A stretch of DNA of 35,765 bases. It comes from Tannerellaceae bacterium. GTDB taxonomy: Bacteria; Bacteroidota; Bacteroidia; Bacteroidales; Tannerellaceae. Under the pieces are notes generated by a model. That model was not told where the DNA came from. It did no database searches and was given only the letters and a program-made list of their open reading frames with translations. The stretch's first letter is position 1. Every line of letters begins with the position of its first letter. Where the stretch lies: positions 1 to 35,765 of the forward strand of contig JAITRG010000263.1 of the NCBI GenBank assembly GCA_031288515.1, given 5' to 3'. Of the stretch, positions 1 to 24,744 are shown in pieces. The position numbers and the translations under genes are program-made.

Positions 1-398
1 ACGGCTATGACTGAAAGAAGACCTTTCATCCTTCTTTCAGAAAAAAAAATACAGGGCCGGTAAAAAAGGAAAAAAATCATTGCGTCCTCTTTTCCAAACC
101 ATTGCGACGCCTTTGGTAAATCATTGAGAAGACTCTGATGAAGCATTGCGAGGACTAAAAAAAAGCGCTATGACGCCTTCAACAGACCATTATTGTGGTT
201 TGGTAAAGAGTATATATTGGTTTACTGAAGACTGTATACTGATTTTTTTATGGAATAAATCCCTCTCTTCCGGTTTCCTGAAAGGAGGCTGAACGGTCTT
301 TTTTCAGGATTTTCATCCTGTAAATCAATCCTTTGCAACAAAGCTGAAAGTTGAAAGGAAAGGTGAAAAAGTATCGTTTAGCAGGGGAGTATTCCTGT
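1..398 (+). repeat. Dispersed repeat element, copy A (inverted relative to copy B at 24357-24744)
   Basis: This stretch aligns end to end with the reverse complement of 24357-24744. Position 1 pairs with 24744 and position 398 with 24357, and the first 30 bases match at 27 positions. The order of parts is the same in both copies: a short hairpin (ACTGAAAG and CTTTCAT arms at 10-28), an A-rich spacer with GGCCGG, 22-bp repeats, a CCCTCT/CCGGTTT block, a second CTGAA/TTCAG pair near 288-307, and a conserved block at 320-398. Within that block 36 bases (352-387) are identical to copy B. The alignment begins at base 1, so the element probably continues off the window. No transposase is seen in or beside it. 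Confidence 0.85.
74..226 (+). repeat. Degenerate 22-bp tandem repeats inside copy A
   Basis: About seven units with a 22-base period start at 74, 96, 118, 140, 162, 184 and 205. The unit resembles AAACCATTGCGACGCCTTTG followed by GT. One junction (184-204) is a base short. Units diverge mostly in the middle and keep the AAAC or AAAT start and a CTTT-like end. A 22-base period is not a multiple of three, so this is not a coding repeat; it is close to two turns of B-DNA. Confidence 0.7.
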
Positions 399-653
399 TG
401 AAAAAGCGGTTCCCGGGCCGGTATCAGGTTTAGCTTCTTTCTTCGCACGTTTTTTAATCTGTTAAAGTAGAAATAAATAGAAAGGAAGCATTTACTATAT
501 GTGCGCCAACTAATCCTTTGCATATATAAAACAAAGCAGAAAGCAGCCGTTTGCTATCTGTTTGTTCAAAAAAACAGCGGGTAAAAACAATTGTTTCAGC
601 GCCGTTCCGAGCCTTCGAAAGCCGCTTTTCCGGGCGCTTTCGAGCCTTCCGTT

Positions 654-763
654 TTTTCATTATACTGTCTTCGCCAGACCATTATACTGTTTTTGTAAAG
701 ACATCATAATGCCTTTGCAAAAGCGCCATAATCCTTTCCTCAAGACTCCGTACTGTTTTTCCG
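654..763 (+). repeat. Second 22-bp repeat array near copy A
   Basis: Five consecutive 22-base units start at 654, 676, 698, 720 and 742. Typical units read AGACCATTATACTGTTTTTG and AAGACATCATAATGCCTTTG (first 20 bases). They share the ATTAT/CATAAT core and CTTTG end with the arrays at 74-226 and 24524-24677. This array lies outside the 398-bp element, so the 22-bp unit occurs in more than one setting. The rest of 399-803 shows no convincing gene, only a GC-rich imperfect inverted repeat (CGAAAGC ... GCTTTCG) near 616-642. Confidence 0.65.
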
Positions 764-803
764 AAACTCTCCCGCAAAACAGTCAATAACGACTCATTTG
801 ATT

Positions 804-999
804 ATGAAAACAATTCGAAGAAAAAACCAGCGCTGAATTATTCGATGCTCTTTGTTCTTCGCTAGCTGAAAAGTATGAAGAAGACTCTGATCGATATTAT
901 AGTGAAGAGTTTGTTATTTGGCGTTATTATAGTCATAATTCTATTCGGTTCGAATATACTCCGAGGGGTCATATTGAAGGTTTCATACCGATTCTTTAA
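804..999 (+). pseudogene. Small gene with a start-proximal frameshift, 63 open codons, unknown function
   Basis: A frame open from 808 to the TAA at 997-999 reads KQFEEKTSAELFDALCSSLA and continues with an acidic, aromatic stretch (YEEDSDRYYSEEF) ending in EGFIPIL. It has no start codon of its own. An ATG lies at 804, one base out of frame, followed by four A residues. Removing one A would give ATG AAA CAA TTC and join the start to this frame. I infer a one-base insertion, or a start that needs frameshifting. I do not recognise the family. A competing 49-codon frame (875-1024) encodes a hydrophobic peptide and looks like a shadow of this one. Confidence 0.5.
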
Positions 1000-1016
1000 T
1001 GGTAAGAATAAGAAAA

Positions 1017-1039
1017 GAGGGTGAATCACTCCCTTTTTT
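1017..1039 (+). terminator. Weak hairpin plus T-run between convergent genes
   Basis: GGGTGAATCACTCCC can fold into a short stem with one bulged T and is followed by six T residues. The A-rich stretch on the other side supplies a T-rich tail for the minus strand. It lies between the small plus-strand remnant and the minus-strand TolB-like gene. The stem is short, so this is tentative. Confidence 0.35.
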
Positions 1040-1044
1040 ACGTT

Positions 1045-1959
1045 TTATTCGATACGGTAGCTGACGAAAGCGAAGCGTTTGCTGTCGGGAGCCCATGAGT
1101 TTACATTGATGGTTCCTTGTCCGCCGAACAGGGTGGCGAGGATTCTGGGTTCGCCGCCTTTGGATGGGATAAGGAGTAACTCTACGTTTTTGTTGGCAGG
1201 GTGGGAGCTGGGTTCTACGTCACCTTTTTTATAGGCGATGTAAACTACTGATTCTCCGTCGGGCGATACATGGGGGAACCATGAATTGCGGGTTTCGTCC
1301 TTTGTTATTTGGGTTTGTTCGCTGCCGTCGGCTTTCATTCGCCAGACTTGCATCAGACCGCTGCGTGTGGAATTGAACCAGATGTATTTTCCGCAGGGAG
1401 AATATTCGGGGCCGTCGTCTAACCCTTCGGCGGTGGTGAGGCGTTTTTCTTCTCCTCCTTCGACCGGGATTACGTAGACGTCAAAATTGCCGTTCCTTTC
1501 GGCGCAGTAGGCCAGTTCTTTTCCGTCGGGGCTCCAACCGTGCAGGTAACTGGGCGCTAATGGAGTGATAAGCCTTGGCGTGCCTCCTTCAATCGGCAAG
1601 GTATAAATGCGTGACCGCCCGTCTTCTTTTGTTCCGTGGCTGATGGCTATTTGTTTGCCGTCGGCTGACAGTACGTGGTCGTTGTTGCAACGGGTAGCGT
1701 ATCCCGTATTGATTTCTACCGGTTCGCCCGGCGAGGCAGGGAATATCTTATACAGTTTCCCTTTACTGTTGTAGATTAGCCATTGCCCGTCTGTTGCCCA
1801 GTTGGGCGCTTCAATCAGATAGGGAAATTCCTTCAGGACGTCTGTTTTACCGGTAGTGACGTCTATTACCTTCAGAACACTGGTTACCCGGGTATTTTGC
1901 GCCTGCAAAAAAGTAAATCCGAAAAGCAGGCATAAGGCTGAATTGAGAACGCGTTTCAT
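1045..1959 (-). CDS. Exported TolB-like beta-propeller protein (PD40 repeats)
   Basis: This 304-aa protein begins with a Sec-type signal peptide ([20 protein letters not shown], cleavage probably after AQA). It consists of PD40/WD40-like blades: [40 protein letters not shown] and [10 protein letters not shown], roughly one every 45 residues, as in the C-terminal half of TolB. Such periplasmic propellers usually bind proteins or sugars. It follows the GH88 gene by 36 bases on the same strand and is probably co-transcribed, so a role in sensing or binding uronic-acid oligosaccharides is plausible but inferred. The related PL22 oligogalacturonate lyase fold was considered, but the protein is shorter and I see no clear catalytic His set. 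Confidence 0.8.
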
Positions 1960-1995
1960 AAAGCGAGTAAAAATTTTAGGTTAGTGATTCATATA

Positions 1996-3186
1996 TTATC
2001 TGATAAGCTTTTTTAAACGGAGAAGCGCTTCTACGTAGTAGTAGTCGGCATAGCTGAGAGGTACGTCTACTTCCGAGTTGTCCGGGAAATTCCCCGTGGA
2101 ATGCATTAGCGCGAAACACCGGTTTGTCCCAGGTTTCGCCAAGTATTCTGGCGATGATAATGAACGTATTTGCTGTTCTGCCAGCTCTAAGCATTGCTTT
2201 CCAAATTCGCCTTTATCCAGTTGGCTTAATTCAATTAATGCCGATGCCATAATCGCTGCCGCAGAGGCGTCGTGGGGCGTATCGATACTTATGGGAGCAT
2301 CGAAATCCCAATAAGGAATCTTATCTTCGGGAAGGGTGGGGTGGTTTATGAGGAACCCGGCAATATTGCGGGCTTGTTCGAGGTATTTATTGTTGCCGGT
2401 TTCGCGTGCCATCGCTGTGTATCCGTACAGTCCCCATGCCTGTCCTCTTGCCCATGCCGATTCATTTGAAAAGCCCTGGTGCGTTTGTTTGATATGGGCT
2501 TTGCCGGTAATTGTGTCGTACGATACGACATGGTAACTGCTAAAGTCCGGCCGGAAGTGATTCTCGATTGTTTTCAAGGCATGCGAATCGACTATCTCGC
2601 GAAATATATCATTACCCGTTTCTTTAGACGCCCATGTAAATAATTCGAGGTTCATCATATTGTCTATGATGACGGGATATTGCCACACATCCTTATTAAA
2701 GTCCCATGATTTAATAGCGCAGACAGTAGGATTATACCGCGTAGCCAACGAATGTGCCCCGGCGATCAAAACATCTTTGTAATGCGGATTCTGCGTAATA
2801 CGAAGCCCGTTGCCAAAACTGCAGAACAGCATAAAACCTAAATCATGCGTATTGGTAAGATACTTGGCAGGCTCCACGCGACCGGTATAAAGTTCGGCAT
2901 ACTTCCTTAATTCCGGCGCAGGATTATTCTCATACAGATACCAAAGTTCTCCGGGAAAGAACCCGCTGCACCACCAACTGTAATCGCTTGTTTCTAAGGT
3001 TCCGTCGGGCTTGATGGTTGTAGGAAGTTTTCCTTCCCGGTTTTCAAGTTCCTGCGCCATTAAAACCGCCTGCTGCGTAGCTGTTTGCAACCCTCTTTCA
3101 ATGACTGCGCTCATCGGTTCTTGCTTATTACAACTGATAAAAAACAAACCTATGGCTAAGAATACAAAAAAAATATGTTTTTTCAT
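1996..3186 (-). CDS. GH88 unsaturated glucuronyl/galacturonyl hydrolase (lipoprotein)
   Basis: A 396-aa alpha6/alpha6-barrel hydrolase predicted to remove the unsaturated uronic acid left at the end of oligosaccharides by polysaccharide lyases. GH88 signatures are present: THDLGFM with the first catalytic Asp (residue 115) and IIDNMMNLEL with the second (residue 175), plus the Trp-rich SAWARGQAWGLYG. I start at the ATG ending at 3186 because it gives a clean lipoprotein signal (MKKHIFFVFLAIGLFFISC, Cys19). The frame extends 13 codons further upstream, but those codons lie inside the promoter and inverted repeat at 3196-3231. First gene of a two-gene operon with the TolB-like protein; no lyase or SusC/SusD pair is nearby. 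Confidence 0.88.
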   Translation of the reverse strand: MKKHIFFVFLAIGLFFISCNKQEPMSAVIERGLQTATQQAVLMAQELENREGKLPTTIKPDGTLETSDYSWWCSGFFPGELWYLYENNPAPELRKYAELYTGRVEPAKYLTNTHDLGFMLFCSFGNGLRITQNPHYKDVLIAGAHSLATRYNPTVCAIKSWDFNKDVWQYPVIIDNMMNLELFTWASKETGNDIFREIVDSHALKTIENHFRPDFSSYHVVSYDTITGKAHIKQTHQGFSNESAWARGQAWGLYGYTAMARETGNNKYLEQARNIAGFLINHPTLPEDKIPYWDFDAPISIDTPHDASAAAIMASALIELSQLDKGEFGKQCLELAEQQIRSLSSPEYLAKPGTNRCFALMHSTGNFPDNSEVDVPLSYADYYYVEALLRLKKLIR

Positions 3187-3195
3187 GGGAATAAT

Positions 3196-3231
3196 AAAAT
3201 TATGCGTTTTCGCAAACATACGCATAATTTT
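3196..3231 (-). promoter_or_regulatory. GH88 promoter inside a 12-bp-arm inverted repeat (operator or terminator)
   Basis: AAAATTATGCGT (3196-3207) and ACGCATAATTTT (3220-3231) form a perfect 12-base inverted repeat with a 12-base centre. On the minus strand, the Bacteroidota -7 match TATGTTTG (3213-3220) overlaps the centre and the edge of one arm, about 27 bases before the GH88 start codon. No good TTTG lies at -33; TATG is found 19 bases upstream. The arrangement fits an operator overlapping a promoter. The same structure followed by TTTTATTATT could also terminate ychF transcription. Confidence 0.55.
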
Positions 3232-3282
3232 TTATTCTTCATATCATTAAGAAGATATTTATTATCAGTGGTTCAGGCCTTT

Positions 3283-4386
3283 TTATACATTGAAACGGAA
3301 GTGCATGACGTCGCCGTCCTGTACGATGTATTCTTTACCTTCTACGTTCATTTTGCCGGCTTCTTTTACGGCGGCTTCGGAACCGTATTTGATGAAGTCT
3401 TCGTATTTGATTACTTCGGCGCGGATAAAGCCTTTCTCGAAGTCGGTATGGATAACGCCGGCGCATTGAGGAGCTTTGCTGCCTTTCAGGTAGGTCCAGG
3501 CGCGTACTTCCTGTGGGCCGGCAGTGAGGAATGTCTCTAAGTTGAGTAGTTTGTAGGCCAGCTTAATCAGGCGGTTTACGCCTGATTCTTCCAAACCTAT
3601 CTCGGCAAGGAACATTTGCCGTTCGTCATAGGTTTCAAACTCTGCGATTTCGCTTTCAATCTTGGCGGCTACGATCAGTATTTTTGCGTTTTCTTCTTTT
3701 ACGGCTTCACGGATGGCGTCTACATATTTATTTCCCGATATGGCGCTTGCCTCGTCTACATTGCAGATATACATAACCGGTTTATTGGTAAGCAAGTATA
3801 ATTCGCGGGCGATTTTCTGTTCGTCTTTTGTATCGAATGTTACTGTGCGGGTGCTTTTTCCCTGTTCTAATGCTTCTTTGAATTTGGCAAGTACGTCATA
3901 TGCCAGTTTCGCTTGTTTGTCGCCTCCGGTCTGCGCTTGTTTCTGTACTTTGGCAAGGCGGCTGTCTATTGTTTCAAGGTCTTTTATTTGTAGTTCCGCA
4001 TCAATGATTTCTTTATCCCGGACAGGATTCACGCTGCCGTCTACGTGCGTGATATTATCGTCGTCAAAACAGCGGAGTATGTGAAGGATAGCGTCTGTTT
4101 CGCGGATGTTGGCCAGAAATTTATTCCCTAATCCTTCCCCTTTGCTGGCTCCTTTTACGAGTCCGGCAATATCTACTATTTCTACTGTCGTAGGGACTAT
4201 CTTTTCCGGATGCACCAGTTCTGCCAGTTTATTTAAACGTTCGTCGGGAACTGTGATTACGCCCACATTAGGCTCTATCGTACAGAAAGGGAAATTGGCT
4301 GATTGCGCTTTTGCGTTTGATAAACAATTAAAAAGAGTAGATTTTCCTACATTCGGAAGGCCTACGATACCACATTGTAATGCCAT
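3283..4386 (-). CDS. ychF: YchF/OLA1-family ATPase
   Basis: A 367-aa Obg-like P-loop NTPase, the usual length for the family. The P-loop GLPNVGKST (9-17) is followed by G3 DIAG (72-75), then a Leu where Ras-type GTPases carry Gln. The G4 motif is NVDE (209-212) instead of NKxD, the known hallmark of ATP preference in YchF. The C-terminal TGS domain contains the typical TYLKGSKAPQCAGVIHTDFE segment. The family is ribosome-associated and linked to translation and stress responses. It has its own promoter-like element at 4428-4435 and is separated from polA by 101 bases that also hold a parS-like site. Confidence 0.96.
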   Translation of the reverse strand: MALQCGIVGLPNVGKSTLFNCLSNAKAQSANFPFCTIEPNVGVITVPDERLNKLAELVHPEKIVPTTVEIVDIAGLVKGASKGEGLGNKFLANIRETDAILHILRCFDDDNITHVDGSVNPVRDKEIIDAELQIKDLETIDSRLAKVQKQAQTGGDKQAKLAYDVLAKFKEALEQGKSTRTVTFDTKDEQKIARELYLLTNKPVMYICNVDEASAISGNKYVDAIREAVKEENAKILIVAAKIESEIAEFETYDERQMFLAEIGLEESGVNRLIKLAYKLLNLETFLTAGPQEVRAWTYLKGSKAPQCAGVIHTDFEKGFIRAEVIKYEDFIKYGSEAAVKEAGKMNVEGKEYIVQDGDVMHFRFNV

Positions 4387-4427
4387 TTATTTCGTTGTTT
4401 TATTGGTTGTTATAACTTATTCGGCTA

Positions 4428-4435
4428 CAAAGATA
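4428..4435 (-). promoter_or_regulatory. Bacteroidota -7 element upstream of ychF
   Basis: The minus strand reads TATCTTTG, an exact TAnnTTTG match, 41 bases before the ychF ATG. The -33 element is weak: TTCG lies 20 bases upstream, and a true TTTG lies only 15 bases upstream. Confidence 0.55.
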
Positions 4436-4465
4436 GTTATTTATTTAAGACAAACCGAATGGATT

Positions 4466-4481
4466 TGTTTCACATGAAACA
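4466..4481. other. parS-like site (TGTTTCACATGAAACA)
   Basis: This 16-mer is a perfect palindrome apart from the central CA/TG step. It matches the widely conserved chromosomal parS consensus TGTTTCACGTGAAACA at 15 of 16 positions, differing only at the central G. It lies between the polA stop and the ychF promoter. ParB/Spo0J proteins bind such sites, which usually cluster near the replication origin. A second site is at 11872. Binding is inferred; parA and parB are not in the window. Confidence 0.65.
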
Positions 4482-4487
4482 TCTACA

Positions 4488-7253: not shown

Positions 7254-7326
7254 TACAATTAACAGGATTTAGTAAGACAATTGACGGTAAATGTACGAAA
7301 AAAGCGTCTTACTCAATAGTTTTTCT

Positions 7327-7334
7327 TATTTTTG
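7327..7334 (+). promoter_or_regulatory. Bacteroidota -7 element upstream of the polyprenyl synthase gene
   Basis: TATTTTTG is an exact TAnnTTTG match, ending 17 bases before the ATG at 7352. No good -33 TTTG is visible, and the implied leader is very short. Confidence 0.45.
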
Positions 7335-7351
7335 CTCGTCTTTAAGCGACT

Positions 7352-8326
7352 ATGGATAAAAGAAAAATTATTGAGGAACCGGTAAATGCCGAGTTTAAAT
7401 GCTTTAAGGATGAATTTGTAAGTTCGCTGTCAAGTTCAACTTTGAAGTTGCAGTCTGCTATTGATAAGATAATGTTGTCATCGGGCAAGCATATTCGCCC
7501 GCTACTTGTTTTGCTGACAGCCAAGGCTTGTGGGAAGATTACGGAAAACACAATAAATTCGGCCGTACTGTTAGAGCAGTTACATACGGCGAGCCTGATT
7601 CATGATGATGTGATCGACAATACAAAGCAACGGAGAGGCGTTCCTTCCCTGAACGCTTTTTTTGATAATCGCGTATCTGTATTGGTGGGCGATTATATTT
7701 TGTCTTCTGCCTTGGTACGTTCGATTCAGATTGGCGATTTGCGGATCATGTGTATTGTTTCGGAAGTGGGCCGCGCTTTATCGGAAGGAGAGATTCGTCA
7801 ATTAGAAGTAGTAGAAGATATTGTCTTGGATGAAGATTCTTATCTGGAGATAATTAAGAAGAAGACGGCTATGCTGATTTCCGCCTGTACTGAAATCGGA
7901 GCCATTACAGCCGGCGCATCAGACGAATTAGTTACGTATTGCAGGCAAATAGGGGAGTACCTTGGCTATTGTTTCCAGATTAAAGATGATATTTTTGACT
8001 ACTATTCAAATCTGAATATAGGCAAACCTACCGGCAATGATATTTTAGAAGGAAAAGTAACCCTGCCTTTATTATACGCTTTACGAAAATCGGATGGCGA
8101 TGATTCTTCTTATTATATGCAGTTGATAGAAAATAAAGATTTTACCCCCAGTCATATTGCCGAACTGATCTTATTTGCCAAAGAGAACGGCGGAATTGAG
8201 TATGCTGAATTAAAAATGAAGGAATATCGCGATAAAGTGGTTGAGATGATGTATAAACTCCCACATTCCGACGCCCGCAATAGCCTGATAGAACTTGCCG
8301 ATTATATCATAGAAAGAGAAAAATAA
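7352..8326 (+). CDS. ispB: All-trans polyprenyl diphosphate synthase
   Basis: A 324-aa trans-isoprenyl diphosphate synthase. The first Asp-rich motif is DDVID (85-89) in LIHDDVIDNTKQRRGVPSLN, and the second is DDIFD (212-216). The N-terminal SSGKHIRPLL is the substrate-binding GKxxRP segment. Small residues just before the first motif (HTASLIHDD) fit a long-chain product, such as the side chain of menaquinone. The exact chain length cannot be read from sequence, so the ispB symbol is by family. It stands alone on the plus strand, divergent from polA and convergent with deoC. Confidence 0.9.
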   Translation: MDKRKIIEEPVNAEFKCFKDEFVSSLSSSTLKLQSAIDKIMLSSGKHIRPLLVLLTAKACGKITENTINSAVLLEQLHTASLIHDDVIDNTKQRRGVPSLNAFFDNRVSVLVGDYILSSALVRSIQIGDLRIMCIVSEVGRALSEGEIRQLEVVEDIVLDEDSYLEIIKKKTAMLISACTEIGAITAGASDELVTYCRQIGEYLGYCFQIKDDIFDYYSNLNIGKPTGNDILEGKVTLPLLYALRKSDGDDSSYYMQLIENKDFTPSHIAELILFAKENGGIEYAELKMKEYRDKVVEMMYKLPHSDARNSLIELADYIIEREK

Positions 8327-8351
8327 AGTAAACGATAGGATTCGTTTACTT
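8326..8351. terminator. Bidirectional terminator-like hairpin between ispB and deoC
   Basis: AAGTAAACG and CGTTTACTT form a perfect 9-bp stem around an 8-base loop in the 32 bases between two convergent genes. It begins at the last base of the ispB stop codon. No long T-run follows, so it may act mainly as a convergent-end structure. Confidence 0.55.
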
Positions 8352-8358
8352 ATATGCG

Positions 8359-9222: not shown

Positions 9223-9227
9223 GTTAC

Positions 9228-15479: not shown

Positions 15480-15487
15480 CAAAAATA
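15480..15487 (-). promoter_or_regulatory. Bacteroidota -7 element for the SpmA/B-ybeY-mnmG-uvrC operon
   Basis: The minus strand reads TATTTTTG, an exact TAnnTTTG match ending 17 bases before the ATG of the membrane-protein gene. No convincing -33 TTTG is present. Confidence 0.45.
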
Positions 15488-15534
15488 ATAAATCTTATTC
15501 ATATATTGACGTTTATGCGTCTGATTTGGATAAC

Positions 15535-15561
15535 CCCGGCGCAAGCGAAGTACAACCCGGG
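15535..15561. repeat. Possible REP-like GC hairpin in a 364-bp intergenic region
   Basis: CCCGG (15535-15539) and CCGGG (15557-15561) bracket a 17-base loop in a GC-rich patch (about 15530-15600) within otherwise AT-rich DNA. The patch resembles short GC palindromes scattered through Bacteroidota genomes, but there is only one copy here, so repetition cannot be shown. The rest of 15463-15826 holds only the two divergent promoter elements. Confidence 0.3.
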
Positions 15562-15762
15562 ATGAGAAAGGCGAAAACATGACGCCGCCTTCCGTAAATC
15601 ATAGCGATGTTTTTTTCTTTCGTCAATTCCATATTCCAACCTCAAGTATAAAAATACCGGGTTTTTCGGACAAAGGGAAAGCTTGCATGAAAATAATCGC
15701 TGGATTTGGGGGTTAATATTTATCAAATACGTTTGGATATGCTTGATATGCTGCTATTTAGT

Positions 15763-15793
15763 ATTGATCTATGGGATAAATATCTTATCTTTG
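15763..15793 (+). promoter_or_regulatory. Promoter of the 2-hydroxyacid dehydrogenase gene
   Basis: ATTG (15763-15766), then 19 bases, then TATCTTTG (15786-15793). This matches the Bacteroidota TTTG-N19-21-TAnnTTTG pattern with one mismatch in the -33 box. The ATG is 34 bases further on. Confidence 0.65.
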
Positions 15794-15826
15794 TTTTTAT
15801 TAATCCAGGTAGAAAAAATATAAATT

Positions 15827-16783: not shown

Positions 16784-17181
16784 TCGTGCAATTCTAATAT
16801 AAATACAAATAGATTCAGATATTAACAAAAAATCTTGCAAATCAGCTATAAATGTGATTAATCGTTATAATTACATATTCATACAATTGAATATAGGAAT
16901 TAGGCCGTATTTATCATTTAATGTAAAATTATGACAAAATATATTACATATAACCTAATATATGGCTGTCTGTAGATGAATTTGGTTAAATTATTTTGGA
17001 TTCACATATCTTTTTTAGATTTATATTTTTTATTAAAGATATTTATTATATTTGCAGGTGCAGATTTAATATTTGATTAGATTTTTCTATTTAATTCATC
17101 TATGGAAAATAGAAATTGAAATGAAAATAATTATTTTTTCAAGAGAATAATTTATGAACAGTATTATTTAATAAATGAAAT
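16784..17181. other. AT-rich 398-bp intergenic region without a gene
   Basis: The region is strongly A/T-rich and I see no open frame of useful length on either strand. It holds a candidate promoter at 17047-17054 for the following operon. No convincing terminator hairpin for the upstream dehydrogenase was found. Confidence 0.6.
17047..17054 (+). promoter_or_regulatory. Bacteroidota -7 element upstream of the DUF6261-like gene
   Basis: TATATTTG is an exact TAnnTTTG match and implies a leader of about 120 bases before the ATG at 17182. The surroundings are so AT-rich that a chance match is possible. Confidence 0.4.
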
Positions 17182-17937
17182 ATGAATAAAGTGAAAGAAA
17201 TTAACCGACCCAGCTTTCGTCTTGTGAGAGATGGCGAGCATTATGATTATCATTCGAAAATTTTACAGATAATATCTCCTCTGCTCGCTAAAGAATATAA
17301 GATGGAAGAACAGCGTTTGGTGTATGAACGCCTTTTTAAGAAAGAGGATGATGCTTATTCGCGTAACAGGGGATTTGAAGAGACGAAGGATATTCAGATA
17401 GCCAATAAGAAACGGGACGAGTTTTTTGTTTTCATAAAAAGGACAATTGAAAATATGAGGTTTCATCCGGATGCAACTATAAAAGCCTATTGGGAAGAAT
17501 TATATGAAGGTTTGGAACCTTATAAAAATGCACACCGGGCGAATGCAATAGAGGATACAGTCTTGGTTTTTTCTTTTATAGAAGAGATGAATCAGGAAAA
17601 ATATCAGGAGATATTAAAAAAGTTAGATTTATTATTGGTGATCGATAAATTAACAGAAGCGAATAATAAATGCAGCCAACTGTATGGCGAACGCATGAAT
17701 GAGAAGCAGAAAAGGAATAAGGAAGATAAAATGAGGAAAATCCGCCCTTTAGTGGATGATGCTTTTTTTGAATTGATAAAGTTTATAAATGCTATCTATT
17801 TAGTCAGTTTCCAAATATCAAAAGAAGAACAAGTGATTCAGGAAATAGGAGAATTGATAACCCAAGTCAATGTATGTACAAAAGCAATGCAGGATTCTAT
17901 TGTTAAAAGGCGTCAGAAAGTGAAAAGAGCAAAATAG
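17182..17937 (+). CDS. Uncharacterised helical protein, DUF6261-like
   Basis: A 251-aa protein with no signal peptide or membrane segment. It is highly charged and predicted almost all-helical, with heptad-like Lys/Glu stretches near 150-195 (KLTEANNKCSQLYGERMNEK). The N terminus INRPSFRLVRDGEHYDYHSK resembles a Bacteroidota family I know as DUF6261, whose members start with a similar RNGEHF-type motif and have about this length. No function is established for that family. The gene stands 7 bases before aroK in the same direction, so it is probably co-transcribed. The family assignment is from memory of the pattern. Confidence 0.7.
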   Translation: MNKVKEINRPSFRLVRDGEHYDYHSKILQIISPLLAKEYKMEEQRLVYERLFKKEDDAYSRNRGFEETKDIQIANKKRDEFFVFIKRTIENMRFHPDATIKAYWEELYEGLEPYKNAHRANAIEDTVLVFSFIEEMNQEKYQEILKKLDLLLVIDKLTEANNKCSQLYGERMNEKQKRNKEDKMRKIRPLVDDAFFELIKFINAIYLVSFQISKEEQVIQEIGELITQVNVCTKAMQDSIVKRRQKVKRAK

Positions 17938-17944
17938 GTACAGG

Positions 17945-18469
17945 ATGAAACGTATTTATCTGATAGGTTATATGGGGGCCGGTAAAACCACTGTGGGAAA
18001 GAAACTTGCCAGGCAAATGAATTTATCGTTTATAGACCTTGACCATTATATCGAAGCCCGCTACCATAAGATGGTAAGGCAACTTTTTGAAGAAAAAGGA
18101 GAAGCGGTTTTTCGTGATATTGAATGTAAGATGTTACATGAAACAGGTATGATTGAAAATGTAGTGATTTCAACCGGCGGAGGGACCCCTTGTTTTTTCG
18201 ACAATATGTCTTTTATGAATCAAACAGGGACAACCGTTTATTTGAAAACATCTTCGGGTGAACTGACTAAACGGTTAGAACTTGTAAAGCATACCCGCCC
18301 TGTATTAAAAGGGCTTTCCGGCGAGAAACTTAAACAATTTATAACAGATAATTTGGAGAAAAGAGATCCTTGGTACAAGCAGGCTTCGGTGATATTCGAC
18401 GCTGAAAAAATGCTTACGGAAAATGACGTTAATGAAATAACATGCGAACTGAAGAAATTGTTACAGTAA
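17945..18469 (+). CDS. aroK: Shikimate kinase
   Basis: A 174-aa P-loop kinase that phosphorylates shikimate at the 3-hydroxyl in the chorismate pathway. Walker A is GYMGAGKTTVGKKLA (8-22). Shikimate-binding residues are in DLDHYIE (Asp33), FRDIE (Arg57) and STGGGTP (Gly78-80). LVKHTRPVL is the lid/adenine region with the conserved Arg. The length is normal. It lies between the DUF6261-like gene (7 bases) and the alanine-dehydrogenase-like gene (15 bases); no other aro gene is in the window. Confidence 0.95.
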   Translation: MKRIYLIGYMGAGKTTVGKKLARQMNLSFIDLDHYIEARYHKMVRQLFEEKGEAVFRDIECKMLHETGMIENVVISTGGGTPCFFDNMSFMNQTGTTVYLKTSSGELTKRLELVKHTRPVLKGLSGEKLKQFITDNLEKRDPWYKQASVIFDAEKMLTENDVNEITCELKKLLQ

Positions 18470-18484
18470 TAAAAATTAAGCAGA

Positions 18485-19687
18485 ATGGGGTCAACACATT
18501 TACAGGGAGGGTATATTCCACAGGAATTATTGAAAGAACTTAGCAAGATGAATAACCAGTTGCTTATAGGTATTCCTTGTGAAAAGACCGGAGGAGAACG
18601 CCGGTTGGCCCTCACTCCCGAGGCCGTGGATATGCTGACGGACGCCGGCCATCGTATCCTGATTGAAACGGACGCCGGATTGGGTATTAACTATTCGGAT
18701 AATCATTTTTCGGAAGCTGGGGCAGAGATTGTTTCCGGCCCGCAGGAAGTTTACCAGGCAGACCTTCTATTGAAAATACTTCCCCCTTTACCTTCGGAGG
18801 CGGCTTTGATGAAACCACGGTCAACCCTGTTTTCAATGCTCCAGTTTGGGATGTTCAGACAAGAGACTTATGAAATGATGATGGCGAAACGGATGAATGC
18901 CATTGCTTACGAACTCATGATCGACGGACAAAAAAAGTCTCCGGTATTAAATGTTATTTCCGAAATTGAAGGGACGGCTTCCATTACGATTGCGTCGGTT
19001 TTATTAAGCAATACGCAAGGGGGGAAAGGCGTTTTACTGGGCGGTATTCCGGGTATTGCCCCTACCGAAGTGATTATTATCGGCGCCGGCTCTGCGGGAA
19101 CGGTGGCTGCACGCTCTGCTTTAGGCATGGGGGCTACCGTAAAGATATTTGATAATGACATCAATAAATTACGAATGATTCAAAATGCGTTAGGGCAAAA
19201 AGTTTTTACTTCCAACTTTCATCCGAAAGTGTTGCATAATGCCTTTCGTACGGCCGATGTGGTTATTGGGGCGATGAGTTATATTAATGTACAACGGAAA
19301 TATATGATTGCCGCCGACCTGATCCGTACGATGAAAAAGGGGGCGTTGATTATTGATTTACGTATAAATCAGGGAGGCTGTTTTGAAACGACTTGTTGTC
19401 TCTCTGCTTCCGAACCGGAAGTGTTCGAACAATTTGGCGTATTACATTATTGCAAACCGAATATCAGTAATTCGGTAGCGCGTACAACGTCTATGGCATT
19501 CAGCAATATTTTCGTCCCGTTATTACTTCTGCTGGGCGACACAGGTTCGATCCAGGCAATGGTGAAAGAAGAAAATTGTTTCCGTTCGGGTATCTATATG
19601 TATTCCGGGAAACCGGTTAATAGTTATGTGTCGAATCATTTTAATATACCATCCAATAATCCGGATATCTATTTATCGGCATTTTGA
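18485..19687 (+). CDS. Alanine dehydrogenase / PNT N-terminal family protein
   Basis: A 400-aa protein of the alanine dehydrogenase/transhydrogenase-alpha family. The N-terminal catalytic half has IGIPCEKTGGERRLALTPEA with the substrate Arg, and LLLKILPP with the conserved Lys97. The NAD domain has IIIGAGSAGTVAARSALGMG and the acidic VKIFDND. Two residues I recall as catalytic in classical Ald differ: the His of the LFTYLHLA-type segment is Gln120 (LFSMLQFG), and the Asp of the AIDQGG-type segment is Asn295 (LRINQGG). The Gln may be normal for Bacteroidota; I am unsure about the Asn. The start keeps the YIPQELLKEL extension seen in Bacteroidota relatives. An ATG 21 codons downstream is the alternative start. 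Confidence 0.82.
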   Translation: MGSTHLQGGYIPQELLKELSKMNNQLLIGIPCEKTGGERRLALTPEAVDMLTDAGHRILIETDAGLGINYSDNHFSEAGAEIVSGPQEVYQADLLLKILPPLPSEAALMKPRSTLFSMLQFGMFRQETYEMMMAKRMNAIAYELMIDGQKKSPVLNVISEIEGTASITIASVLLSNTQGGKGVLLGGIPGIAPTEVIIIGAGSAGTVAARSALGMGATVKIFDNDINKLRMIQNALGQKVFTSNFHPKVLHNAFRTADVVIGAMSYINVQRKYMIAADLIRTMKKGALIIDLRINQGGCFETTCCLSASEPEVFEQFGVLHYCKPNISNSVARTTSMAFSNIFVPLLLLLGDTGSIQAMVKEENCFRSGIYMYSGKPVNSYVSNHFNIPSNNPDIYLSAF

Positions 19688-19722
19688 TTGGGAAAGGTAG
19701 GAATGTATTATAAAGTTTTACT

Positions 19723-19730
19723 TAACTTTG
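19723..19730 (+). promoter_or_regulatory. Bacteroidota -7 element upstream of korA
   Basis: TAACTTTG is an exact TAnnTTTG match, 48 bases before the korA ATG. No correctly spaced -33 TTTG is evident. Confidence 0.5.
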
Positions 19731-19778
19731 CAATAATATGCTTCAATTAATCAGAATGCTAAAACTAAAAAAAGTGTT

Positions 19779-21629
19779 ATGGCAGAACAGACAAAAGTTA
19801 CAACTTTAGAAAAAGTTGTGGTTCGTTTCTCGGGAGATTCGGGAGACGGTATGCAGTTAACCGGTACGATCTTTTCGAACTTGTCGGCTATTTTAGGGAA
19901 TGAAATTTCTACTTTCCCTGACTTTCCTGCAGAGATTCGCGCCCCCCAGGGTTCTTTGAGCGGCGTTTCCGGTTTTCAGGTTCATTTGGGTTCCCGGGAA
20001 ATTTTTACTCCCGGAGACAGAGCGGACGTCCTTGTTGCGATGAACCCCGCGGCTCTAAAGGTAAACGTTAATCATCTGAAACCAACTTCGATTATTATCA
20101 TCGACTCCGACTCATTCGGGAAGGCGGATCTTGATAAGGCGAACTTTACTACCGACGACCCTTTTAAAGAATTAGGCCTTACGGCACAGGTAGTTGCTGC
20201 GCCAATCTCTACGATGGCGAAGGATGGCCTGGCTGAGTTCGGGCTTGATAATAAGTCGGCGGTTCGTTGTAAAAATATGTTTGCTTTGGGTTTGGTGTGC
20301 TGGTTGTTCGACCGGCCATTAGACAAGGCCGAACATATGTTGCAAAATAAATTCTCAAAGAAGCCGGCCATCGCGAAAGCCAATATCAAAGCGCTAACCG
20401 ACGGCTACAATTATGGCAGCAACATTCACGCTTCGGTTTCTACCTATCGTATAGAAAGTAAAAAAGCCGCACCCGGTTTTTATATGGATATCAATGGCAA
20501 TAAGGCTACCTCTTACGGCTTGATAGCTGCCGCTGAAAAAGCCGGGTTGAAACTGTTTCTGGGCAGCTACCCGATTACCCCTGCCACTGATATTCTGCAA
20601 GAGCTTTCCGCCCGTAAAGAATTAGGCGTTAAGGCGCTCCAGTTTGAAGACGAGATTGCCGGTATCTGTACGGCTATTGGAGCGAGTTTTGCAGGTTCAT
20701 TGGCCGCTACGTCTACGTCTGGCCCAGGTTTGGCCCTAAAGAGCGAGGCCATTGGATTGGCTATGATTGCCGAATTACCCTTAGTCGTTATCGATGTGCA
20801 ACGTGGCGGGCCGTCTACGGGATTGCCAACCAAAAGCGAACAAACCGATTTGCTTCAGGCACTTTACGGGCGTAATGGAGAAAGCCCTGTTGCCGTTATT
20901 GCAGCCTCTACGCCCACAGATTGCTTCGACGCGGCTTTTTGGGCAGGAAAATTGGCTGTTGAGCATATGACGCCTGTTATTTTGCTAACGGATTCGTTCC
21001 TGGCGAATGGTTCTTCGGCGTGGCGGATTCCCGATTTGGATACGTATCCGGACATTAAACCGGCCTATCCGGCGGATTATAAAGGCGAAGAACCCTGGAA
21101 ACCGTATCGCCGCAACCCAGAGACACTGGTTCGTTATTGGGCGATACCGGGCATGGAAGGCTTTGCCCACCGGATTGGCGGATTAGAGAAAGATTATGAT
21201 ACAAGCGCTATCTCTACCGAGCCATACAATCATCAGAAAATGATAGCGACACGCCAGGCTAAAATAGATAAGATTGCCGGTTGTATACCCGGACAGAAAG
21301 TGATAGGGGATGAAGAGGCAGACTTACTGATTGTAGGGTGGGGAGGTACTTTCGGCCATTTATGCGAAGCTATGGAAACGATGCGCGAAAAGGGGAAAAA
21401 AGTAGCGTTAGCCCATTTTAAATTTATCAATCCGTTACCTGAAAATACGGCGGAAATATTTGCCAAGTACAAAAAGGTAGTAGTAGCAGAGCAAAACAAC
21501 GGGCAGTTTGCCAATTATTTACGCAGTAAAGTATCCGGCTTTACTCCCTGCAAATTCAATCGTGTAAAAGGGCAACCTTTCATTGTCTCAAGATTAGTTG
21601 AAGAATTTACCAAATTATTGGAGGCTTAA
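19779..21629 (+). CDS. korA: 2-oxoacid:ferredoxin oxidoreductase, fused gamma-alpha subunit
   Basis: A 616-aa fusion. Residues about 10-200 are the gamma domain (VVRFSGDSGDGMQLTGTIFS and FPDFPAEIRAPQGSLSGVSG). Residues about 240-616 are the alpha (pyrimidine-binding) domain with SYPITPATDILQELS, QFEDEIAGICTAIGASFAG and TSTSGPGLALKSEAIGLA. With KorB it oxidatively decarboxylates a 2-oxoacid, most likely 2-oxoglutarate, to the CoA thioester and reduces ferredoxin. In anaerobes it often also runs reductively. The gamma-alpha fusion is the normal Bacteroidota form. It is followed 3 bases later by korB. Substrate choice rests on family resemblance. Confidence 0.93.
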   Translation: MAEQTKVTTLEKVVVRFSGDSGDGMQLTGTIFSNLSAILGNEISTFPDFPAEIRAPQGSLSGVSGFQVHLGSREIFTPGDRADVLVAMNPAALKVNVNHLKPTSIIIIDSDSFGKADLDKANFTTDDPFKELGLTAQVVAAPISTMAKDGLAEFGLDNKSAVRCKNMFALGLVCWLFDRPLDKAEHMLQNKFSKKPAIAKANIKALTDGYNYGSNIHASVSTYRIESKKAAPGFYMDINGNKATSYGLIAAAEKAGLKLFLGSYPITPATDILQELSARKELGVKALQFEDEIAGICTAIGASFAGSLAATSTSGPGLALKSEAIGLAMIAELPLVVIDVQRGGPSTGLPTKSEQTDLLQALYGRNGESPVAVIAASTPTDCFDAAFWAGKLAVEHMTPVILLTDSFLANGSSAWRIPDLDTYPDIKPAYPADYKGEEPWKPYRRNPETLVRYWAIPGMEGFAHRIGGLEKDYDTSAISTEPYNHQKMIATRQAKIDKIAGCIPGQKVIGDEEADLLIVGWGGTFGHLCEAMETMREKGKKVALAHFKFINPLPENTAEIFAKYKKVVVAEQNNGQFANYLRSKVSGFTPCKFNRVKGQPFIVSRLVEEFTKLLEA

Positions 21630-21632
21630 AAA

Positions 21633-22646
21633 ATGGAACAAACAACAACATATCAACCAAAAGATTATAAAAGCGACCAATATGTACGCTGGTGCCCGGG
21701 TTGTGGCGACCATGCCGTATTGAACTGTATCCATAAGGCAATGGCCGACCGGGGGATTGCCCCGAAAGACATTGCCGTTATCTCCGGTATCGGATGTTCT
21801 TCCCGTTTGCCCTATTATATGAATTCTTATGGATTTCATACCATTCACGGGCGTGGAGCGGCCATCGCTACCGGCGTTAAAACGGCCAATCCCGCCTTAA
21901 CCGTATGGCTGGCTACCGGCGACGGCGATTGCTTAGCCATTGGAGGCAATCACTTTATCCATGCCGTACGGCGTAATGTAGATATAAATATCATTCTTTT
22001 TAATAATAAGATTTATGGCCTTACAAAGGGACAATATTCTCCTACGACCGACAGAGGGTTTGTATCCAAAAGCTCCCCTTACGGAACGGTGGAAGACCCC
22101 TTTATCCCTGCCGAGCTAACCTTTGGCGCAAGGGGTAATTTCTTTGCCAGGGCCATAGACGTAGACCTTAAAAATACAACGGAGGTATTAACGGCCTGCT
22201 CAAAGCATAAAGGCGCGTCGGTGGTAGAAGTTCTGGTAAACTGCGTAATCTTTAATGACGGCGTCCACAAGCAAATATCTGTCAAAGAGGCCAGAGCGGA
22301 ACGCACGATATTCCTTCGCCATGGCGAGAAAATGCTGTTCGGCAACGACAACGGAAAAGGAATCGTACTGGACGGTCTGAAACTAAAAGTCATAACCATA
22401 GGCCAGGACGGATATACCCTCGACGATGTATTAGTACACGACGCGCACACGCCGGACGCCACCCTCCATGCCATGCTGGCCATGATGAGCGGCGACCTGC
22501 CCGTAGCCTTAGGCGTTATCCGCGACGTAGAAGCGCCTTGTTACGACGCCGAAGTAGAAAAACAGATAGCCGAAGTACAAGCAAAGAAACCCATCCGCAA
22601 GCTGCATGATTTGCTGATGAGCGGCGAAATCTGGGAAGTGAAGTAA
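21633..22646 (+). CDS. korB: 2-oxoacid:ferredoxin oxidoreductase, beta subunit
   Basis: A 337-aa TPP- and Fe-S-containing partner of KorA. Four Cys suit one [4Fe-4S] cluster: WCPGCGDH (Cys21, Cys24), GIGCSSR (Cys55) and VLVNCVIF (Cys204). The TPP/Mg motif starts at GDGD (96-99) and continues through LFNNKIYGLTKGQYSPT. The heterodimer carries only this cluster, and no ferredoxin-like delta subunit is adjacent. It is transcribed with korA and ends before a 42-aa HicB-like remnant and a strong terminator. Confidence 0.95.
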   Translation: MEQTTTYQPKDYKSDQYVRWCPGCGDHAVLNCIHKAMADRGIAPKDIAVISGIGCSSRLPYYMNSYGFHTIHGRGAAIATGVKTANPALTVWLATGDGDCLAIGGNHFIHAVRRNVDINIILFNNKIYGLTKGQYSPTTDRGFVSKSSPYGTVEDPFIPAELTFGARGNFFARAIDVDLKNTTEVLTACSKHKGASVVEVLVNCVIFNDGVHKQISVKEARAERTIFLRHGEKMLFGNDNGKGIVLDGLKLKVITIGQDGYTLDDVLVHDAHTPDATLHAMLAMMSGDLPVALGVIRDVEAPCYDAEVEKQIAEVQAKKPIRKLHDLLMSGEIWEVK

Positions 22647-22669
22647 GGGTAGACGTTAAAAAGAATAAT

Positions 22670-22798
22670 ATGAAACTAAAAGCGATTGTGGAATTATGGG
22701 ATGACGGGACGTATAGTATTTATGTGCCGGATACGAAAAAACACAATCTGACTGCGCAAGGTGCGTCGGTTGCGGAGGCTAAGAGCAATATGATTTGA
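22670..22798 (+). CDS. 42-aa HicB-like antitoxin fragment
   Basis: ATG at 22670 to TGA at 22796-22798 encodes MKLKAIVELWDDGTYSIYVP followed by a variable stretch and ASVAEAKSNM. This fits the first two beta-strands and start of the helix of the HicB (partial RNase H-like) fold, whose pattern is an alternating strand, DG-Y-hydrophobic strand, then G-x-TxxEAxxNI. Complete HicB proteins continue through the helix and a DNA-binding tail, both missing here. No HicA toxin is adjacent. It is either a truncated remnant or a minimal stand-alone domain. It lies 23 bases after korB, upstream of the terminator. Confidence 0.55.
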   Translation: MKLKAIVELWDDGTYSIYVPDTKKHNLTAQGASVAEAKSNMI

Positions 22799-22813
22799 AT
22801 ATTTGTACACAGG

Positions 22814-22847
22814 AAAGCCCCTTTTTCGTTATGATTCAGGGGCTTTT
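22814..22847. terminator. Intrinsic terminator, probably bidirectional
   Basis: AAGCCCCT and AGGGGCTT form a perfect 8-bp GC-rich stem (22815-22822 and 22838-22845) around a 15-base loop, followed by TTTT and preceded by AAA. It lies between the korAB run and the convergent beta-helix gene and could serve both. Confidence 0.85.
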
Positions 22848-22867
22848 GCTATTTTAAAAAGCGCTGT

Positions 22868-24103
22868 TCAGAAGTTTTGCCGGGAGGCTCCGGCGATGGC
22901 CGGCGGGGATGTCAGCGGAACGCTCCGGCAGGGGTGGAGGTATTCGGAAGCGGGGATGAGGCTGATGCCGGCAGACCTTAACTCGCCGGGAAGATAGTTG
23001 TCGACGTCCGGCTCCAGTTTGCCTTTCAGGGATTCGGACAGACTGGCGGAGGGGAGGTAGTCCGCGTTCAGATCGCTTTTCTTATACGTCTGATTGCCCT
23101 TATCGACCGACAGGAAGTTGGCGGCAAGGTTCTTAATGTTTTCCGAGAACAGATTGTTCACCATCACGATGCCGGACGCCGGCAACCGGGAGGCCGGTAT
23201 AAAAAGCGAATTGCTCGTTTCTTTACTGTTCAGTATGGTGTTATGACTCAGATAGAGCGCATGTTCTGTCCAGCGCCCGATGTTTTCTTCGTGGAAGGCG
23301 ATGATCGACGTATTGGGGCTTTGCTCGGATTGCTGGATGATATTCCCGACAAGGATATGCGTCCCGCCATCGGGGAAATCAACCTCATAGCTCGAGTTGT
23401 AACTGTCGTCATTCTCGTTGGCGATCCGGTTATAGGCCAGGAGGCCGAACCGGGCGCGGCATTTGACTAAATGGCCCTCTTTGGCATGGTGCGAATACGA
23501 GCCTGTCATCAGGAAAGTATCAATCTGCCCGACATACAGATTGTGCGACCTGCCGTCGCCATAGCCCAGATATCCAAATTCCGTATGGCGTACGATTAGC
23601 GTACCGCCGCTGTTTGCCGTCAGAATACCGCACTCGCTGTGCAGAAACTTGCAGTTGTCTACCGTCAGCCGGCCTTTGTCGAAGCGTATCCCGGCTCCGT
23701 TCCGGTCGGGTACCTTGGCATTGATAAACGTAAACCCTTCTACCTTTACGTTTCCGCCGGCGATCTCCCAGATACCTTTCCCTGCCCAATGCCGTCCGTT
23801 GGCGTCGAGGATAACCTCGCCTCCCACGGCGCGGATGTACAGCTCATCCTGTTCCCATATCGTCACATCTCCCATGTACGTACCTGCATCCACCTCGATC
23901 AGCGTACTGTCTCCCGCTGCGACCGCCGCCTGGCGGATGGAGGTAAACTCCCTGTTAGGACCTACCTGCAGGACATGGGTATAGGCAATCTCATTCTCCG
24001 GAGCGTTTTCTATTTGCCGGTCATCGCCGCCGGGCAGTAACTCTATTTGCTCGCAGCCCATCATGGCAGCAAGCGCAATCAAAAAAAGAACGTTCAACTT
24101 CAT
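22868..24103 (-). CDS. Right-handed parallel beta-helix lipoprotein
   Basis: A 411-aa surface or periplasmic lipoprotein. I choose the ATG ending at 24103 because it gives a lipoprotein signal (MKLNVLFLIALAAMMGC, Cys17); an ATG 15 codons earlier would spoil it. Residues about 65-330 read as stacked beta-helix rungs: GTYMGDVTIW, GGNVKVEGFTFINA, GGTLIVRHTEFGY, THILVGNIIQ, HALYLSHNTILN, SGIVMVNNLF. This fold is typical of polysaccharide lyases, some glycosidases and adhesins. No catalytic set is clear enough to choose, so the substrate is unknown. Base composition is visibly GC-richer than the flanking core genes, consistent with acquisition. It is the intact gene of an otherwise decayed island. 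Confidence 0.82.
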   Translation of the reverse strand: MKLNVLFLIALAAMMGCEQIELLPGGDDRQIENAPENEIAYTHVLQVGPNREFTSIRQAAVAAGDSTLIEVDAGTYMGDVTIWEQDELYIRAVGGEVILDANGRHWAGKGIWEIAGGNVKVEGFTFINAKVPDRNGAGIRFDKGRLTVDNCKFLHSECGILTANSGGTLIVRHTEFGYLGYGDGRSHNLYVGQIDTFLMTGSYSHHAKEGHLVKCRARFGLLAYNRIANENDDSYNSSYEVDFPDGGTHILVGNIIQQSEQSPNTSIIAFHEENIGRWTEHALYLSHNTILNSKETSNSLFIPASRLPASGIVMVNNLFSENIKNLAANFLSVDKGNQTYKKSDLNADYLPSASLSESLKGKLEPDVDNYLPGELRSAGISLIPASEYLHPCRSVPLTSPPAIAGASRQNF

Positions 24104-24144
24104 CGTGTCATTATTTAAGGGTTTGCATTTGTTTTGCCTCCATT

Positions 24145-24159
24145 CCATACTATGTATGG
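24145..24159. promoter_or_regulatory. Short inverted repeat upstream of the beta-helix gene
   Basis: CCATAC-TAT-GTATGG is a perfect 6-bp-arm dyad, 42 bases upstream of the chosen start codon. It could be an operator. No TAnnTTTG match was found in this upstream region. Confidence 0.3.
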
Positions 24160-24186
24160 AGGGAACGGTTTATTCATTCGTTATTT

Positions 24187-24354
24187 TTAAAATGCGGTAA
24201 ATATATAAAATTTATTTTCATCCATGACGGCCATCCGTTTCTTTTGGTCAGGCAAACCTGCAACGGTTGCAGCATCGTCTTTGCCGATATAAATCCGTCC
24301 ACCCTGCGCATTGGCAAAACCGCATACCCATTTGAGATAATCGTCGTGCCACGA
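24187..24354 (-). pseudogene. Remnant of an AlbA_2 (Schlafen-type) DNA-binding domain protein
   Basis: A minus-strand frame reads SWHDDYLKWVCGFANAQGG, then RIYIGKDDAATVAGLPDQKK, ending at a stop at 24187-24189. This closely follows the AlbA_2 (older name AAA_4) signature, in which W(R/H)(D/E)(E/D)YLKW(I/V)CGFANAQGG is followed by a glycine-rich strand, IGKDD and GL. Intact proteins have this domain at residues 10-130 and continue for 300-500 residues as RecG-like or transcriptional regulators. Here about 40 matching codons remain, with no start codon, and upstream the frame runs straight into repeat copy B. I read it as a fragment left by insertion or deletion at the repeat boundary. Confidence 0.7.
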
Positions 24355-24356
24355 GG

Positions 24357-24744
24357 ACAGGAAAATACCCCTGCTAAACGATACTTTTTCACCTTTCCTT
24401 TCAGCTTCCAGTTTTGTTGCAACTGACTGGTTTACAGAATAAAATCCTGAAAGAAGACGAAAGAAGACCTTTCAGCTTCCTTACAGTCTTTAGAAACCGG
24501 AGGAGAGGGATTGACGCCAAAAAAAACCGTTATGACACCTTTGGTAAACCGTTATGATGCCTTTAGTAAATCGTTATGACGTCTTCAGTAAACCGTTATG
24601 ATGTCTTTGGCAAACCACTATATACTTTTTACCAAACCATTATACCGGTTTACTGAAGGTATCATAATGACTTTTTTCCCCTTTTTGCCGGCCTCATTTT
24701 TTTGCTGAAACGGGGCTGAAAGGTCTTCTTTCAGCCATAGCTGT
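24357..24744 (-). repeat. Dispersed repeat element, copy B (inverted relative to copy A)
   Basis: Read on the minus strand, this 388-bp stretch matches 1-398 along its whole length, including a 36-base identical block at 24368-24403. Both ends of the central part carry hairpins. At 24714-24736 GGCTGAAAG and CTTTCAGCC surround GTCTT. At 24447-24475 CTGAAAG and CTTTCAG surround a duplicated GAAAGAAGAC. Between them lie the 22-bp repeats. One boundary abuts the AlbA_2 remnant and the other faces a second coding remnant. No transposase is present, so it would be non-autonomous if mobile. Confidence 0.85.
24524..24677 (+). repeat. Seven 22-bp tandem repeats inside copy B
   Basis: Units start at exactly 24524, 24546, 24568, 24590, 24612, 24634 and 24656. 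The first four follow AAACCGTTATGAYGYCTTYR plus GT, with only a few differences each; the last three diverge. This is the most regular of the three arrays. Sequence between units is absent, so it is a tandem array and not a CRISPR. The period equals about two helical turns, which would place every copy on the same face of the DNA. Confidence 0.85.

What the first reader, a model, noticed from the sequence alone, without database searches (positions are those of the whole stretch)
1..24744. Inverted pair of ~390-bp hairpin/22-bp-repeat elements 24 kb apart
Bases 1-398 align along their whole length with the reverse complement of 24357-24744, with the same order of hairpins, 22-bp array and a block with 36 identical bases. 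Neither copy carries a transposase. Two copies in one 36-kb window suggest a family, and the inverted orientation could support inversion of the core block between them. I know of no named Bacteroidales element with this architecture.
Basis: seen in the sequence. Interest (0 to 1): 0.75.

Follow-up and report, generated by a model that had tools for sequence, protein, structure and literature searches.

The report
IS701-type mini-transposon carrying 22-bp repeats
The two matching stretches are worn copies of a small, gene-less jumping element, present in dozens of copies in this bacterium's genome, whose ends fit a known transposase family (IS701) and whose middle is a variable array of 22-letter repeats; sister genomes give no sign that the DNA between the two copies flips.

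Summary
In detail: 1-398 matches the reverse complement of 24357-24744 far above chance, with a 36-base exact block. The real element is longer (about 550-700 bp), and the two copies are damaged members of a large dispersed family: A keeps one end and is cut by the contig end; B has lost both ends. Full copies begin TTCTACTTTAACAGATTAA and end in its near-inverse; 125 ends of this form, all interiors together, lie in this genome against 1 in the control. Insertions duplicate 4 bp, mostly NTAN: three empty sites in sister species and 7 of 16 two-ended copies. Whole IS701-family insertion sequences elsewhere in the order carry the same ends and 4-bp duplications, and this genome has one IS701 transposase gene with the right-hand end. 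So it is best read as an IS701-derived MITE. Its core, a 22-bp palindromic array of about 5-11 units, also occurs alone in sister species. Inversion of the 24-kb block is not supported: order and strand match sister genomes. [quoted passage not shown] A new variant of a known kind.

The parts
1..472 (-). Copy A: MITE with intact left end, reading on the minus strand; cut by the contig start, so its right part is missing
   Evidence: element positions 1-291 match 472-197, 341-417 match 81-1
454..472 (-). Left terminal inverted repeat of copy A, TTCTACTTTAACAGATTAA
   Evidence: exact match at C24:454-472
473..476 (+). ATAA, the 4 bases outside the end of copy A (NTAN form; the partner side is off the contig, so the duplication itself cannot be checked)
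74..249 (-). 22-bp array of copy A (about 8 units)
24357..24813 (+). Copy B: MITE that lacks about 75 bp at each end, both terminal repeats included
   Evidence: element positions 75-486 of 561, 83.6% over 457 columns
24384..24457 (+). Left hairpin arm; this stretch also matches without the array in G016 and G008
24524..24677 (+). 22-bp palindromic array of copy B, 7 units between an A-run and a T-run
24704..24784 (+). Right hairpin arm; also matches alone or with the array in G016

Best explanation
Both stretches are remnants of one MITE family (a transposon without genes). Complete copies are about 550-700 bp: an IS701-type left end, a hairpin arm, an array of 22-bp palindromic units between an A-run and a T-run, a second hairpin arm that is roughly the inverse of the first, and an IS701-type right end. 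An IS701-family transposase acting in trans would cut at the two ends and insert the element at 4-bp, mostly NTAN, sites (SHOWN: ends, target preference, duplication, empty sites, a transposase gene beside the same right end in this genome; INFERRED: that this transposase does the moving). The array differs between copies in 22-bp steps (SHOWN); replication slippage or unequal exchange as the cause is INFERRED. The inverted placement of A and B is two independent insertions (INFERRED).
For: Ends: the 19-base pattern TTCTACTTTAACANATTAA (up to 2 mismatches) occurs 125 times in G000 against 1 reversed control, all interiors together. In 91 stretches of G000 examined, 37 left ends (30 classified by script, 7 more read by eye from its rest list) and 26 right ends of this interior were seen. 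Target: 67 of 84 end flanks (6 nested ends dropped from 90) have TA in the middle of the 4 outer bases; TA background 6.8%. Duplication: of 17 two-ended copies found by script, 16 have full flanks and 7 of these 16 have identical 4-base flanks, permutation mean 1.6, P 5e-5. Two of the seven (L048, L088) have another interior; one of the seven is TTTG, not NTAN. Empty sites: the C69, C22 and C9 copies are absent in sister species with one copy of CTAA, ATAA, CTAT. Partner: G000:C52:944-2263 encodes an IS701-family transposase (NCBIfam NF033540, 217.7 bits, cut-off 150; Pfam DDE_5, 152 bits), followed by TGTTAAAGTAGAA and TTAA. Whole IS701 copies in G247, G064 and G255 have TTCTACTTT(A/G)ACAGATTAAA left ends and TGT(T/C)AAAGTAGAA right ends with duplicated ATAA, TTAA, TTAG, CTAA. 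Published IS701 ends are ---YACT-Y--YR with a 4-bp direct repeat (PMC2266710, passages); TTCTACTTTAACA meets 7 of 7 stated positions. Array-region lengths in 26 of 28 distinct loci lie within 3 bases of a 22-bp ladder from 122 to 254.
Against: 9 of 16 two-ended copies do not have identical flanks, so many copies have decayed, recombined or been mis-joined. The only IS701 gene found in G000 lacks a left end, so no complete autonomous copy was seen in this genome. Two further empty-site tests, C137 and C160, were not clean. Copy B has no end and copy A only one, so their own insertion cannot be checked. Some copies carry other ends (CAGGGCAACCGC type), so IS701 may not be the only mover. L019 and L072 fall off the length ladder.
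Confidence: 0.88

Rival explanations
1. The two inverted copies bound an invertible 24-kb segment, flipped by recombination between them.
For: They are inverted and share a 36-bp exact block.
Against: In G015 the gene at window 1043, the block 17000-22648 and the block 25268-34000 lie in order on the + strand of one contig, C180; in G007 and G011 the two sides of copy B are collinear too. G016 and G008 have the two sides on different contigs and say nothing. The pair is about 69% identical overall, poor for recombination. Dozens of other copies exist.
Confidence: 0.03
2. The hairpin-array-hairpin core is itself the mobile unit (a foldback element), and the IS701-type ends are a late or accidental coat.
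For: In G016 the core occurs with about 100-bp inverted arms and no IS701-type ends seen by eye (L183, L184, L186, L187); the array alone occurs in G015 and G008; in G000 some cores have CAGGGCAACCGC-type ends instead.
Against: The three clean empty sites lie exactly at the IS701-type ends with 4-bp duplications. I found no duplication or empty site for the bare core, but I did not test it systematically.
Confidence: 0.15
3. The array works as an RNA structure or a two-way transcription terminator (A-run, palindrome, T-run), and copies persist for that reason. This can be true beside the MITE reading.
For: Palindromic units between an A-run and a T-run; none of 20 array loci examined in G015 has a frame of more than 150 residues across the array, though four shorter frames reach into it.
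Against: The full foldback register pairs 64% of cells, no better than registers shifted by 22 (65%, 63%); this test was crude, with 31 sequences of which six were one-base-shifted repeats of others. Neighbouring frames show no preferred orientation. No Rfam match in the window and no terminator-like site in 24300-24900.
Confidence: 0.15

Closest known systems
BrickBuilt MITE of Porphyromonas gingivalis (PMC4596501; abstract, section 5 and the first part of section 7 read, plus passages)
   Same: Transposase-free element with two flanks, an internal tandem array (23 bp there, 22 bp here) of varying unit number, short inverted ends, many copies
   Different: Ends there are GAGACCTTTGCA-like and fit IS5-family elements; duplications there are inconsistent and 4 of 19 copies have both ends. 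Here the ends are IS701-type with 4-bp duplications, the units are palindromic, and the array and arms also exist as separate modules
IS701 family insertion sequences (PMC2266710; passages read)
   Same: Terminal signature ---YACT-Y--YR and 4-bp direct repeats
   Different: No transposase gene inside; 550-700 bp instead of 1400-1550 bp
MITEPgRS / MITE464 of P. gingivalis (as told in PMC4596501)
   Same: MITE with internal tandem repeats
   Different: 41-nt repeats and GAGACTGTTGCA ends

Membership tests
MITE | 50-1000 bp, no transposase gene, many copies | tested here: met
   561-bp type copy; 98 matching pieces in 40 scored of 160 candidates
MITE | Terminal inverted repeats | tested here: met
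   TTCTACTTTAACA/TGTTAAAGTAGAA, extending to 19 bases with one variable position
MITE | Target-site duplication and empty site | tested here: met
   3 clean empty sites of 5 copies tested; 7 of 16 two-ended copies
MITE | Mobilised in trans by a transposase of the same genome | not testable with these tools
   A candidate gene is present; activity not testable
IS701-derived element | End signature ---YACT-Y--YR | tested here: met
   7 of 7 positions; the paper says this consensus does not stand for the whole family
IS701-derived element | 4-bp target duplication | tested here: met
IS701-derived element | Ends shared with whole IS701 elements | tested here: met
   L110, L112, L125, L131
IS701-derived element | Complete autonomous parent in the same genome | tested here: inconclusive
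   One transposase gene with right end only; assembly in 318 contigs, 90.9% complete
BrickBuilt | 23-bp tandem unit | tested here: not met
   Unit is 22 bp
BrickBuilt | IS5-type ends GAGACCTTTGCA | tested here: not met
   Ends are TTCTACTTTAACA
Invertible segment | Alternative orientations of the enclosed DNA | tested here: not met
   Collinear in sister genomes; no reads available, so a rare flipped form is not excluded

The most novel reading that the evidence does not exclude
The 22-bp palindromic array is a module in its own right, confined to a small clade of four species (215, 85, 66 and 32 motif hits against at most 3 in each of the 36 other genomes searched), that has been taken up by several unrelated carriers: IS701-type ends, CAGGGCAAC-type ends, and long foldback arms. 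Its 22-bp spacing of CATTATAATG-like centres, about two helix turns, would suit an array of binding sites for a DNA-binding protein, so that the carriers spread a regulatory or nucleoid-binding cassette. The protein is a guess; nothing here tests it.
Probability: 0.25. Interest if true: 0.6.

Novelty: new variant of a known kind. Interest (0 to 1): 0.42.

Why it matters
Many copies lie at contig ends, so the family probably adds to the fragmentation of this assembly. The array as a separate clade-specific module with several carriers is the open question.

Tried and rejected
Tried without result: an exact 36-base pattern in genome contigs, 0 hits, with the tool's warning that the window's own genome may be left out. 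Pfam on the 81-residue frame left of copy B, 0 families; a reading of it from recall as AlbA-like is dropped. Fold by covariation, no single register, crude test. Rfam and tRNA scans of the window: 0. Promoter/terminator scan of 24300-24900 only: 1 promoter-like site against 0.9 expected, 0 terminator-like. An IS630-like DDE_3 remnant (69.1 bits against an NCBIfam cut-off of 100; Pfam 53.3 against 28.6) beside one TTCTACTTTAACACATT end (L104) was considered as the parent and set aside: the 4-bp duplication and whole IS701 copies with these ends fit IS701, and IS630 duplicates TA (recalled). ISAs1 as parent of the CAGGGCAACCGC ends is undecided: one ISAs1 C-terminal match at a contig start (82.9 bits, cut-off 70) with no such end in the first 600 bases of that locus, and a 22-residue start of a frame next to such an end with only a weak DDE_Tnp_1_assoc match, E 0.046, below cut-off. 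Empty-site tests that were not clean: the C137 (L049) and C160 (L088) copies. In G016 the DNA left of copy B aligns only up to about window 24236, so B has no clean empty site. The regex script timed out half-way; its right-end part was redone. My first hand-made list of two-ended copies (14 pairs, 6 matches) missed L048, L056 and L072 and was replaced by the scripted list.

Full report
What was checked. Bases 1-398 align along their length with the reverse complement of 24357-24744: 418 columns, 287 identical, score 120 against a shuffle maximum of 19, longest exact block 36 bases.

The element is longer. Searching G000 with copy B gave 98 matching pieces in the 40 candidates scored of 160; a second query gave 45 in 40 scored of 173, so both are lower bounds. 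Complete copies begin TTCTACTTTAACAGATTAAAAAACGTGCG and end GAATTAATGTGTTAAAGTAGAA; a type copy, from C69, is 561 bp. TTCTACTTTAACA with up to one mismatch occurs 132 times, reversed control 12; the 19-base form with up to two mismatches 125 times, control 1. In 91 stretches of G000, 37 left ends (30 by script and 7 by eye) and 26 right ends of this interior were found, and 8 ends nested in CAGGGCAAC-type copies; 27 further end-like matches had other interiors or were chance. Not all of the 132 places were fetched.

Copies A and B. A keeps its left end (454-472 on the minus strand, outer flank ATAA) and is cut by the contig start. B matches element positions 75-486 and has neither end. Neither copy can show its own duplication.

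It moves as a transposon with 4-bp duplication. Outside 84 distinct ends (6 nested ones dropped from 90), 67 have TA in the middle of the four flanking bases; TA background 6.8%. A script found 17 copies with both ends on one stretch; one (L056) has a cut flank; of the other 16, 7 have identical 4-base flanks, against 1.6 when pairs are permuted, P 5e-5, and 9 do not match. These include two copies with another interior (L048, L088, both matching) and two with a nested second end (L030, L072, neither matching); without these four, 5 of 12 match. Three copies have clean empty sites in sister species: C69 in G015 (one CTAA), C22 in G015 (one ATAA; only 23 bases of the right side align), C9 in G008 and G015 (one CTAT). 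Two further copies, C137 and C160, gave no clean junction.

The parent family. One locus, C52:944-2263, has an intact 439-residue frame called IS701-family transposase (NF033540, 217.7 bits against 150) and DDE_5 (152 bits), with TGTTAAAGTAGAA and TTAA just behind it. Its left end is missing; a frame that I read by eye as IS1-like lies upstream. It is the only match in G000. In the order, 17 of 295 genomes searched have a match, G000 among them. I printed the flanks of 13 loci, one of them G000's own. Whole elements in G247 (two of the three loci printed; the third print caught another frame), G064 and G255 have the same ends and duplicated ATAA, TTAA, TTAG and CTAA. G210 has related ends with CTAT on both sides. 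The two G152 copies have related ends whose flanks do not match exactly. G179 has different ends. The rest were partial. A published survey gives IS701 ends as ---YACT-Y--YR and a 4-bp direct repeat (PMC2266710, passages). All seven stated positions fit. The 19-base end is also above background in G015 (15), G016 (14), G008 (13) and G014 (11), and at most 3 in each of the other 35 genomes searched.

The core. The array region between fixed anchors was measured in 28 distinct loci (29 rows, B counted twice); 26 lie within 3 bases of a 22-bp ladder (122, 166, 188, 210, 232, 254), which is about 5 to 11 units; L019 (131) and L072 (246) do not. The array also stands alone, between an A-run and a T-run, in sister species. 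Of 41 such loci a simple parser read 30; 17 had 99-100 bases between the runs, five had 77-78, two had 122-123 and six other values. At least two of the 77s (L187, L191) are parser errors, since reads the same loci as 100. A motif from the array has 215 hits in G000, 85 in G015, 66 in G016, 32 in G008 and at most 3 in each of the other 36 genomes searched. In G016 the core has arms of about 100 bp in inverse orientation (for example L183, L184, L186, L187, read by eye). The foldback register is no better paired than registers shifted by 22, so this crude test singles out the palindromic unit and not one long fold. In none of 20 G015 loci does a frame of more than 150 residues cross the array; four shorter frames reach into it; neighbours show no preferred direction.

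The inversion idea. In G015 the gene at window 1043 lies at about C180:21994 on the + strand (with the locus place), window 17000-22648 at C180:36654-42305 and 25268-34000 at C180:47264-56014, all +. G007 and G011 are collinear across B as well; in G016 and G008 the two sides are on different contigs. The assembled order is therefore the shared one. A rare flipped form in a population cannot be excluded without reads.

Comparison with print. BrickBuilt of P. gingivalis is the same kind of thing: a MITE with a 23-bp tandem array, 19 copies, IS5-like ends (PMC4596501, abstract, section 5, first part of section 7). It is not a relative by ends or unit length. A 2024 review of prokaryotic MITEs names BrickBuilt and does not contain the word IS701 (PMC10969869, passages). 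Two papers hold IS701, MITE and miniature inverted together: PMC9208149, where the passages do not link IS701 to MITEs, and PMC10586675, which I did not open. In the listings I saw no described IS701-derived MITE.

Verdict. An IS701-derived MITE family with a captured 22-bp minisatellite: a new variant of a known kind, moderately interesting.

Noticed in passing
window 651-760: A third, weaker 22-bp array lies beside copy A (669-701), inside a different repeat that by eye shares sequence with L032 (C19).
   Followed up: partly
G000: L045, L032, L087; L068, L062, L051, L048, L088; L033, L052, L055, L031; L064, L089: At least four other interiors carry the same TTCTACTTTAACA ends, so these ends carry a set of MITE kinds in this genome.
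   Followed up: partly
L025-L030, L036, L044, L072, L080, L083: A second end type, CAGGGCAACCGCRCCAA (30 hits against 0 control), flanks some copies of the same core and also bounds small elements of 150 and 191 bp; ISAs1 parentage is possible but not shown.
   Followed up: partly
L104:2001-2300 (G000:C271): An IS630-like transposase fragment starts just inside a TTCTACTTTAACACATT end with flank TTAG; origin unclear.
   Followed up: no
L067 (G000:C224:29958-29989): Two TTCTACTTTAACA ends in the same direction 19 bases apart: one element seems to have inserted into another's end.
   Followed up: no
window 22649-25267: In G011 the sequences on both sides of this interval are only about 136 bp apart, so gene 22868-24148 and copy B sit in a variable spot.
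   Followed up: partly
L033, L051, L068, L168-L177: A further repeat with GTGACTGAACGTGACGGAG-like tandem words recurs in G000 and G015 (seen by eye).
   Followed up: no
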